Below the pieces are notes generated by a model. That model saw only the letters and a program-made list of their open reading frames with translations, ran no database searches and had not been told where the DNA came from. A stretch of 64,000 nt of DNA from Siphonodentalium dalli (taxonomy: Eukaryota; Mollusca; Scaphopoda; Gadilida; Siphonodentaliidae), in contig CP136066.1 of assembly GCA_032622095.1 (NCBI GenBank), positions 152,472,224-152,536,223 on the forward strand. Reading direction: 5' to 3'. This document shows positions 18,201 through 21,200 of this stretch, in pieces (position 1 is the stretch's first letter; each line of letters opens with the position of its first letter). The translations under genes were made by a program, and so were the position numbers.

Positions 18201-21200
18201 GTGATTATGTCAGATTAGGTCAACAATTTGTGATGTCGTGTTCGTGTTACGGTCTGTGTGTTATTGAGGGTCAGTGTGTTATTGGGAGGTGAATAACAGA
18301 CAACCATTTAGTGTAACACAGACGGGCTATGTAAATATTTTGTAATGGTGGTCTTCAACAAAATAATGGGCATAGTTAAAGAATTATCTCTCTTTGAAAC
18401 ACAAACTTTAGGTGACGACGGGAAAGTGGTGTGATAAAGCCTAAAATTTTCAAATGAGCATCATAATTTACATAATTACCTGATATCTTGAGTGTTGTAT
18501 CCTGGGAAGGCTAATAACAATAGCTTCCCATGCAAATAGTTCCTGCATGACATGGAATCTAGCCTCCTCGACTGGCGGGTGCATGTAAATTTGCTGGTTT
18601 GTGATTCTCAATTCATGAACCAGTGGCTGAAAAACCAAAATAGCAAATATAAATAAATTTATTTGGTAACAACAAACACGATTTATCAGGTCTGGCTGTT
18701 AGAAAATTGCAGGAGAGCCACAACTGCCCTCCTTAAATTACTCCAAGAAAGCCGTTATTTCCCATATTTCCCAATCTAGGAAATCCATTTATCAATTAAC
18801 TCATATTAACTATATTTCGACAAGAAATTGACATACAATGTTTCCAAGCTAAAGCACATTAAAGAATATCCTCTGTGCATTGGCCACCATTGATCAAAGG
18901 TTCCCAACAATTGTAGCATTCCAGATCATGATCTTTTTATGCGACCTTACAAGCTATGAATCACCGCAAATATTTGGATCGCCTCCATTTTTGATGGTTG
19001 GTCATCAATATAACTCACTTTGATATTTGGATCGCCTCCTACTTTAATGGTTGGACGTTAACCCTTTCTATACTAACGTATTCTCCAATACAGTTATAAA
19101 AGTATACTTTGGAATGTTCCATTATTCATTTGGGGGGATGTTAAGGATATATATGCAGTCCTTATAATTTGCTACGGCAATCAGCAATGCTGAAGCAAAC
19201 TGGGCCACGATAAAGCGATGCCATAGTGGATTGCCGAAGCCAAACAATCTGAATTAAGAAGGTTGCATATGAGCAGATGACAGACATACTTATGGTCGTT
19301 TTGTTGAACTAATTATCTGAACATTTCCTAAAAAACTATTTGTCAATGAGTATTTAGTATAGGGTTAATATAACTCACATTAATATTTGGATCGCCTCCT
19401 ACCTTGATAGTAGAATGTTAATATAACTCACATTAATATTTGGATCGCCTGCTACTTGATAGTATGATGTTAATATAACTCACCTTGATATTTAGATCGC
19501 CTGCTATCTTGATAGTAGGATGTTAATATAACTCACCTTGATATTTGGATCGCTTGCTCTCTTGATAGTATGATGTTAATATAACTCACCTTAATATTTA
19601 GATCGCCTGCTATCTTGATAGTATGATGTTAATATAACTCACCTTGATATTTGGATTGCCTGCTATCTTGATAGTATGATGTTAATATAACTCACCTTAA
19701 TATTTAGATCGCCTGCTATCTTGATAGTATGATGTTAATATAACTCACCTTGATATTTGGATCGCCTGCTATCCTGATAGTATGATTTTAATATAACTCA
19801 CCTTGATATTTGGATCGCCTGCTCTCTTGATAGTATGATGTTAATATAACTCACCTTGATATTTGGATTGCCTGCTATCTTGATAGTATGATTTTAATAT
19901 AACTCACCTTGATATTTGGATCGCCTGCTCTCTTGATAGTATGATGTTAATATAACTCACCTTGATATTTAGATCGCCTGCTCTCTTGATAGTATGATGT
20001 TAATATAACTCACCTTAATATTTAGATCGCCTGCTATCTTGATAGTATGATGTTAATATAACTCACCTTGATATTTGGATCGCCTGCTATCTTGATAGTA
20101 GGATGTTAATATAACTCACCTCGATATTTAGATCGCCTGCTATCTTGATAGTAGGATGTTAATATAACTCACCTTGATATTTGGATCGCCTGCTATCTTG
20201 ATAGTAGGATGTTAATATAACTCACCTTGATATTAGGATCGCCTCCTATCTTAATGGTCGGCTGCAGCGGTGCATCTGTATCCATTGTGTTATCAATACT
20301 ATCCTCGGACCTCCCTCGCAGACACTGAGTCCATGCTTTTAGACCGGCTTCCAACCTCATCGCAAGTCTCTTCTCAACCTACAGAAGAACATTAATAACT
20401 TGAGCAGGGAAATGGCTGGAGGTCTTGTTGGGGGTGGGGGTATCAAACTCAAAATTTCCAACTGCAGAATTATAATAACTTATTGGGGTGGATTGACAAT
20501 AACATGGTGTAATTTTGATGGTTTAGACTTCAACGACATAGACTCAATGTCAAAATTTTACCATCGATCAACCACAATAAGAAATATGTACTCCAGACAG
20601 TCTTTTTTTTATCATTTTTATTTGTCAGATAAACGTTTAACCCTTCCATGACTAGAGCTTCCTGATATTTGGTGAAAACCCAATGCATTCTCTTATATAT
20701 GCGAGTCTCAAATAGGGTTCGGTAACGCAGTACTACCCCCGGAACTGTCCCGGTGCCGATAGTTCTGGAACCGTCAGTTGGTACTGTGAGAAGCCTGAAG
20801 TGTGAACATTTTTGAAAGCATAGAATTTCCCCAAGGAGCATTCCCAACTTTCACTAAGAAAGTGGAATAAATCGTGCAATTTACTTTCCTTCCATACTGA
20901 AATGCAGTCTAAGTATTGAATATTATGTATGCTTTTTATGTGTTGTTGAAAACAAAAAATAAAAACAATAAATAACAACAAATGGGCATGGTACGCTCTT
21001 TCTGACTTGGTTGTCTTTGAGAACTAAACACATTTTTGTTTGGCCTTAGTCTAGCAGAGACCTCTTCATCAAGTTTTGACAGTCGTACTAAAGTTACTAA
21101 ACTGGGCATTTTTTCTAAATAGCCAATGTTGGAAGTCAAAGGGGGATAATTTGTTGCACCTCGGGTGCTGGCATGCCCCCACAGAGCCAAATTGAAACAT

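What the first reader, a model, noticed from the sequence alone, without database searches (positions are those of the whole stretch)
18955..20225. Tandem array of duplicated 5' splice sites downstream of a dynein exon
The sequence shows 18-19 units with a 53-bp period, each carrying the last ~30 nt of exon n, its GT donor and ~23 nt of intron. Fifteen donors, including the real one, keep (A/G)AG|GTGAGT, as strong as the authentic site. The unit is not a multiple of 3, and read-through from the real donor meets TAG 30 nt into the intron, so use of any downstream copy would add a premature stop. Retaining so many consensus donors beside a conserved exon may provide redundant U1 docking, buffer against donor mutation, or set a level of unproductive splicing.
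Basis: partly seen in the sequence, partly recalled or inferred. Interest (0 to 1): 0.9.

Follow-up and report, generated by a model that had tools for sequence, protein, structure and literature searches.

The report
Minisatellite repeating a dynein splice junction
A 53-letter piece spanning the end of an exon and the start of its intron in a dynein gene stands in about 17 tandem copies; nothing found here suggests the extra splice sites are kept for a purpose, but repeats of the same kind turned up at a number of other exon ends in this genome, which makes them natural tests of how cells choose the right splice site.

Summary
In a cytoplasmic dynein 1 heavy-chain gene (minus strand), the exon end and intron (20258-19365) form a 53-bp array of 17 contiguous units, with two decayed units beyond a 303-bp insertion. 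Fifteen donors, the real one included, read (A/G)AG|GTGAGT, and read-through meets an in-frame TAG at +31.

The functional reading is not supported. Among 14 core units the donor is no better conserved than the rest of the unit (1 of 9 variable columns lies in the donor 9-mer; P=0.52). The outermost units have lost the -1 G or the whole donor.

The array is not alone. Of 29 donor-bearing arrays fetched elsewhere in this genome, 16 begin at an exon-like 3' end (for example USP47, PPP1R12A, TSP1), against at most 12 of 80 lone donor-like words (13 of 26 with paralogues merged, P about 6e-4; exon calls by eye, not blind). Seven of 18 arrays found with an acceptor word sit at acceptor|exon junctions, so the process is not donor-specific.

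Best reading: exon-edge minisatellites, born by tandem duplication across splice junctions and tolerated in introns. Human IFI6 is a precedent. The unusual part is recurrence at both exon edges.

The parts
20226..20378 (-). exon n of the cytoplasmic dynein 1 heavy chain gene (153 nt, phase 0-0); its last 33 nt head the repeat unit
   Evidence: ORF and acceptor; peptide matches human dynein 1 heavy chain 907-1006
20220..20228 (-). authentic donor AAG|GTGAGT (cut between 20226 and 20225)
19365..20258 (-). 17 contiguous 53-bp junction units (exon tail 33 nt + intron head 20 nt); the first is the real junction, the next 14 carry AAG or GAG|GTGAGT, the last two AAT|GTGAGT
19062..19364 (.). 303-bp insertion between two TTAA (19058-19061, 19365-19368) with inverted CCC..GGG ends: piggyBac-like MITE inside one repeat unit
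   Evidence: class inferred from the ends only
18960..19061 (-). distal remnants of the array: one unit with AAA|GTGAGT (donor 19018) and one partial unit without donor
18627..20225 (-). host intron, 1599 bp
18480..18626 (-). exon n+1 (start exact, end approximate), acceptor tttttcag|CCACTGG, phase 0

Best explanation
It is an exon-edge minisatellite. A 53-bp stretch covering the last 33 nt of the exon and the first 20 nt of the intron was tandemly duplicated. The array then grew and was homogenised by slippage or unequal exchange on its intron side. The exon-adjacent copy stayed the real junction because it alone follows the intact exon and is made first by the polymerase. The downstream copies are near-neutral decoys that splicing must ignore for an essential gene to work. 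Arrays of this type have arisen repeatedly at donor and acceptor edges of exons in this genome. Shown: anatomy, position in the gene, lack of donor-specific conservation, recurrence at both edges (exon calls partly by eye). Inferred: the mutational mechanism, near-neutrality, and use of the first donor.
For: In 14 core units 9 of 53 columns vary, 1 of them in the donor 9-mer (hypergeometric P=0.52). GTGAGT would be invariant by chance with P=0.31, and the invariant run of 16 reaches beyond the U1 site. Counting the donor window itself, 12 of 53 nine-base windows are at least as conserved as the donor in the dynein array, 25 of 55 in L007/L015 (where 9 columns were anchored and so conserved by construction) and 32 of 41 in the USP47 array L008. 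The exon copy differs from the core consensus in its exon half by three synonymous changes and one Gly-to-Ala change. The 19018 unit shares CCATTA and GGAGG with the exon and the 19378 unit shares GGAGG, as in an old, less homogenised array edge.

Sixteen of 29 fetched donor-bearing arrays start at an exon-like 3' end against at most 12 of 80 lone donor words: Fisher P 5.7e-5, or 13 of 26 with three paralogue pairs merged, P 5.8e-4. By the unsupervised Pfam scan (without L016) it is 4 of 28 loci against 1 of 80 (P 0.016; 3 of 27 with paralogues merged, P 0.049). AAGGTAAGT triple arrays occur at 17 places in about 811 Mb of listing; the rotated control word at 9 in about 1109 Mb (P 0.015, or 0.022 with paralogues merged). 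The 7 non-junction donor arrays match the control rate. Seven of 18 acceptor-word arrays are at acceptor|exon junctions. In C. elegans an engineered copy of a 5' splice site 18 nt downstream was used less than the upstream one (PMC8865678, passages).
Against: Junctions carry arrays more often than other sites bearing the same word, which plain uniform neutrality does not predict; a local mutational bias or some selection is needed. Fifteen of 17 contiguous units keep a full donor. Not every comparison shows an excess: CAGGTAAGT arrays lie at 12 places in about 310 Mb, its reversed word at 23 in about 504 Mb, though most of the latter belong to a few repeat families. Exon calls were by eye and not blind. 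No RNA, population or related-species data could be examined.
Confidence: 0.8

Rival explanations
1. Functional donor array: the copies are kept to recruit U1, to buffer the real donor, or to set a level of unproductive splicing of dynein.
For: Fifteen donors match the consensus about as well as the real site; read-through from the real donor meets a stop; donor-bearing arrays sit at exon ends more often than lone donor words do.
Against: No donor-specific conservation within the array; the three outermost GTGAGT copies lack the -1 G and the last unit has no donor; the same kind of array occurs at acceptors.
Confidence: 0.1
2. Exon edges are mutational hotspots for tandem-array birth, for instance through transcription or splicing-linked DNA structure or an exon-intron composition step, so the arrays report a mutation process rather than a function. 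This is compatible with the main explanation and would explain the excess.
For: Excess at donor junctions; arrays also at acceptors; clustering: one DUF3402 exon has an acceptor array and a donor array (L079), and two neighbouring DOCK exons have one each (L078).
Against: Sampling covers a few words and capped lists from C1-C4; genic location was not controlled for; acceptor arrays have no matched control, and the CAGGTAAGT comparison with its reversed word shows no excess of places.
Confidence: 0.35
3. Assembly artefact: a collapsed or over-expanded repeat.
For: Tandem arrays are assembly-prone, and no reads could be examined. Three of the junction arrays are in near-identical pairs on one contig (L007/L016, L019/L020, L025/L026), which could be gene duplicates or duplicated haplotypes.
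Against: Units carry distinct variants, a separate insertion sits inside the array, and the dynein array (about 0.9 kb) is short enough for long reads; junction arrays at many loci have different units.
Confidence: 0.03

Closest known systems
Human IFI6 (6-16, G1P3) minisatellite with multiple splice donors (Turri, Cuin and Porter 1995; original not held; seen as a citation and through a passage of PMC4526556)
   Same: A minisatellite whose units carry splice donors; according to PMC4526556 two downstream repeat units are used as splice donor sites, giving three mRNA species.
   Different: Here the unit is 53 bp and out of frame with a stop, the gene is a conserved motor, and use of the copies is unknown. 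That the IFI6 unit is short and lies at an exon end is recalled, not from a call.
Intron gain or change by tandem duplication carrying splice signals (Rogers model; potato RdRp, PMC4974935, abstract and passages; human internal tandem repeats at exon-intron boundaries, PMC2812944, passages)
   Same: A tandem duplication crosses or creates a splice junction.
   Different: Here no new intron is made; an existing intron is lengthened by many copies of its own 5' junction.
Intronic VNTRs that alter splicing (ABCA7, PMC5954066; TERT intron 6, PMC3948165; search listing with abstract starts only)
   Same: Tandem repeat inside an intron with a reported link to splicing.
   Different: The TERT repeats lie more than 1 kb from the exon junctions (abstract in the listing); here the unit contains the junction itself.
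Engineered duplicate 5' splice site in C. elegans unc-73 (PMC8865678, passages)
   Same: A copy of the donor placed just downstream in a native gene.
   Different: One copy 18 nt away and laboratory-made; there the upstream site was used more.

Membership tests
Minisatellite | Head-to-tail units of about 10-100 bp, many copies, high identity | tested here: met
   53 bp, 16.8 copies, 94%
Minisatellite | Length variation between individuals | not testable with these tools
   Only one assembly is held
Junction minisatellite with multiple splice donors (IFI6 kind) | Unit spans an exon end and contains a consensus donor | tested here: met
Junction minisatellite with multiple splice donors (IFI6 kind) | More than one of the copies is used as a donor in mRNA | not testable with these tools
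   No RNA data
Functional (selected) donor array | Donor columns conserved beyond the rest of the unit | tested here: not met
Intron gain by tandem duplication | A new intron flanked by the duplicated segment | tested here: not met
   The array lies inside one intron between exon n and n+1
Dispersed satellite or transposon-borne repeat | Unit present at many loci | tested here: not met
   16 of 16 matches of the junction query lie in this array; only the best candidates are scored

The most novel reading that the evidence does not exclude
Exon edges in this genome are preferred birthplaces of minisatellites. The process repeatedly multiplies donor or acceptor junctions, in essential genes too, possibly in about a percent of introns (a rough extrapolation). 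The spliceosome reliably takes the exon-adjacent copy among up to dozens of identical sites, so splice-site choice here is set by order of synthesis and exon context rather than by the site itself.
Probability: 0.3. Interest if true: 0.75.

Novelty: new variant of a known kind. Interest (0 to 1): 0.52.

Why it matters
How one 5' splice site is chosen among identical neighbours is usually studied with one or a few engineered copies (my understanding of the field; one example). Natural introns with 15 near-identical donors (dynein) or 83 intact donors among 86 anchored units (L007/L015), and others with rows of near-identical acceptors, make the question directly testable in a living animal by reading RNA. 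If the excess at exon edges holds genome-wide, it would also point to a mutation process tied to gene structure.

Tried and rejected
Donor-specific selection: tested by column variability and by ranking all 9-base windows; rejected for lack of signal. A mobile or dispersed unit: no other locus found. Polyadenylation shielding by U1: the intron holds few signals (ATTAAA at 19898, 19792, 19048; AATAAA at 18663); not pursued. The repeat finder reported no inverted repeat in the region; the insertion's imperfect inverted ends were seen by eye and located.

Raw triple-match counts as evidence of enrichment: dropped, because a few giant arrays dominate them. MAGGTRAGT gave 3951 against 1326 reversed, CAGGTAAGT 1467 against 439, but AAGGTAAGT 231 against 378 and the acceptor word 330 against 816. 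I counted places instead, in lists capped at the first 100 matches. By place, CAGGTAAGT (12 in about 310 Mb) shows no excess over its reversed word (23 in about 504 Mb). By eye those 23 fall into about 5 repeat families and the 12 into about 8, and the reversed word is about twice as common genome-wide (107,347 against 54,250 for the MAGGTRAGT form). I therefore added a rotated control word; one of its 9 array places (C4:241.76 Mb) also contains AAGGTAAGT.

A scoring rule for exon-likeness (acceptor plus open frame) did not separate exons from background, so exon calls were made by eye and backed by Pfam. A unit-length test (multiples of 3) was considered and left out as too small. L018 is an exception to the premature-stop rule: first in-frame stop at +537, donors 99 bases apart.

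Papers: no hit for junction arrays as a genome-wide class in the searches; these see only the held open-licence library. A guess at the organism (taxonomy look-up) led nowhere.

Full report
What is there. On the minus strand the window holds part of a cytoplasmic dynein 1 heavy-chain gene. The exon 20378-20226 and the exon starting at 18626 join to a peptide that matches human cytoplasmic dynein 1 heavy chain, residues 907-1006, along its whole length (E 4.8e-34; Pfam gave no hit). This supports the donor at 20225, the acceptor ending at 18627 and phase 0. The 1599-bp intron begins inside a 53-bp tandem array (TRF 19364-20252, 16.8 copies, 94%). Each unit holds the last 33 nt of the exon, the donor and 20 nt of intron. 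Of 18 GTGAGT in the array, 15 follow AAG or GAG, the real one included; 2 follow AAT and 1 AAA; a last partial unit has none. Read-through from the real donor meets TAG at +31. A 303-bp insertion between two TTAA, with CCC..GGG inverted ends, interrupts the array.

Is the donor kept by selection? In the 14 core units 9 of 53 columns vary, and 1 of the 9 lies in the donor 9-mer (P=0.52). An invariant GTGAGT is expected by chance at P=0.31. Twelve of 53 nine-base windows, the donor's own included, are at least as conserved as the donor; 15 of 53 if the two AAT units are added. Most differences of the core units from the exon copy lie in the exon half (4-6 of 33 against 0-2 of 20), and three of the four consensus differences there are synonymous. 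This fits an exon copy under coding constraint and units free of it. The outermost units have lost the -1 G or the whole donor. This is the pattern of an ordinary minisatellite with a homogenised core and an old edge.

It is not alone. I searched the genome for three consensus donors with 25-55 bases between them and fetched 29 of the 31 array places in the capped lists: 10 of 12 CAGGTAAGT places, 17 of 17 AAGGTAAGT places, and both places that the broader MAGGTRAGT list showed. Sixteen of 29 begin at an exon-like 3' end with an acceptor and an open frame: L007-L011, L016, L018-L020, L022, L023, L025, L026, L029, L032, L033. Three pairs are near-identical: L007/L016, L019/L020, L025/L026. The other 13 were unclear or not at exons; four of them (L014, L035-L037) look like one dispersed family. 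Family hits support five of these exons: USP47_C 1.6e-12, PPP1R12A in the PDB 1e-5, TSP_1 8.5e-11, and, below Pfam's cut-off, amino-acid permease 3.2e-5 and WSC 3.6e-4 with a hand-set exon. The WSC hit did not appear in the automatic scan. The exons of L007, L009, L011, L018, L019, L032 and L033 had no convincing hit; L023 was too short to scan. In L007 plus L015, 86 units were anchored and 83 have an intact donor; the last donor lies 184 bp before the next acceptor.

Controls. Eighty lone donor words were fetched: 40 MAG|GTRAGT sites from one 2.5-Mb end of C1 and 40 AAGGTAAGTNTTT sites spread over C1 (40 of the first 41 listed). At most 12 look like real donors, against 16 of 29 arrays (P 5.7e-5), or 13 of 26 with paralogues merged (P 5.8e-4). 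An automatic Pfam scan of open frames of 20 or more residues (75 frames from 56 of the 80 singles; 37 frames from the arrays, L016 not included) gave 4 of 28 array loci against 1 of 80 singles, the single one an integrase (P 0.016; 3 of 27 with paralogues merged, P 0.049). The scan reports families and member counts, so the loci are inferred. Genome-wide, MAGGTRAGT occurs 54,250 times and its rotation 46,969 times, so real donors are probably a minority of such words. In capped lists the rotated word forms triple arrays at 9 places in about 1109 Mb, AAGGTAAGT at 17 in about 811 Mb, 10 of them at junctions (P 0.015, or 0.022 with paralogues merged). Against this, CAGGTAAGT arrays (12 places in about 310 Mb) are not denser than those of its reversed word (23 in about 504 Mb), most of which fall into a few repeat families. 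Raw counts point both ways and are listed under tried and rejected.

Acceptors. The word TTTTNCAGG in triple gave 21 places in a capped list, and 18 were fetched. Seven of 18 are, by eye, acceptor|exon junction arrays in which the last copy is the real one (L078, L079, L082, L083, L087, L091, L094). Four of the seven have Pfam hits above the curated cut-off: DOCK 1.3e-6, DUF3402 2.3e-10, Neur_chan_LBD 5.8e-6, ribosomal L19 1.2e-4. One DUF3402 exon has an acceptor array before it and a donor array after it, and two neighbouring DOCK exons carry one each. There is no matched control for the acceptor word. Redundant U1 docking cannot explain acceptor arrays.

Reading. The dynein array is one of a class of exon-edge minisatellites. 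Tandem duplication across a splice junction leaves the mRNA unchanged if the exon-adjacent copy is used, and such arrays then drift. An engineered downstream copy in C. elegans was used less than the upstream one (PMC8865678, passages). Against that, older work recalled here holds that equal competing donors can favour the intron-proximal one. If so, these introns are a hard natural test. IFI6 in man is the closest precedent (PMC4526556, passage). I found no report of such arrays as a genome-wide class in the searches named under tried and rejected.

Limits. No RNA, individuals or relatives are held. Exon calls were by eye and not blind. The word-based sample comes from capped lists covering parts of three to four of nine contigs. 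The figure of about a percent of introns in the novel case is a rough extrapolation from these counts, not a measurement.

Noticed in passing
window 19062-19364: 303-bp insertion in a TTAA of one repeat unit with inverted CCC..GGG ends (piggyBac-like MITE); a core of about 120 bp is repeated in the genome: 40 of 4602 candidates were scored and gave 41 matches, this copy included.
   Followed up: partly
L079 (G000:C1:21684400-21686180): One DUF3402 exon with an acceptor array (49 bp x 6) upstream and a donor array (35 bp x 4.1) downstream.
   Followed up: partly
L078 (G000:C1:17126400-17128400): Two neighbouring exons of a DOCK gene (Pfam hit for the first), the first with an acceptor array, the second with a donor array of 49 bp x 27.
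   Followed up: partly
L007+L015 (G000:C1:5917912 to about 5922710): Junction array of 86 anchored units of 55/56 bp, 83 with an intact donor; the last donor is 184 bp from the next acceptor. A near-identical exon with a junction array lies at C1:6.326 Mb (L016).
   Followed up: yes
L018 (G000:C1:14498200-14500700): Junction array with donors 99 bases apart and no in-frame stop until +537, so downstream donor use could lengthen the protein in frame.
   Followed up: no
L014, L035, L036, L037: Apparently dispersed minisatellite family whose unit contains a TTAACCAATACAG|GTAAGT-like stretch with a perfect donor, not evidently at exons.
   Followed up: no
window 52232-53864, 57742-59503, 59780-60108: Related tandem arrays of about 164 bp.
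   Followed up: no
G000:C1:231991190-232058399: Large satellite of about 26 bp carrying CAGGTAAGT in many units.
   Followed up: no
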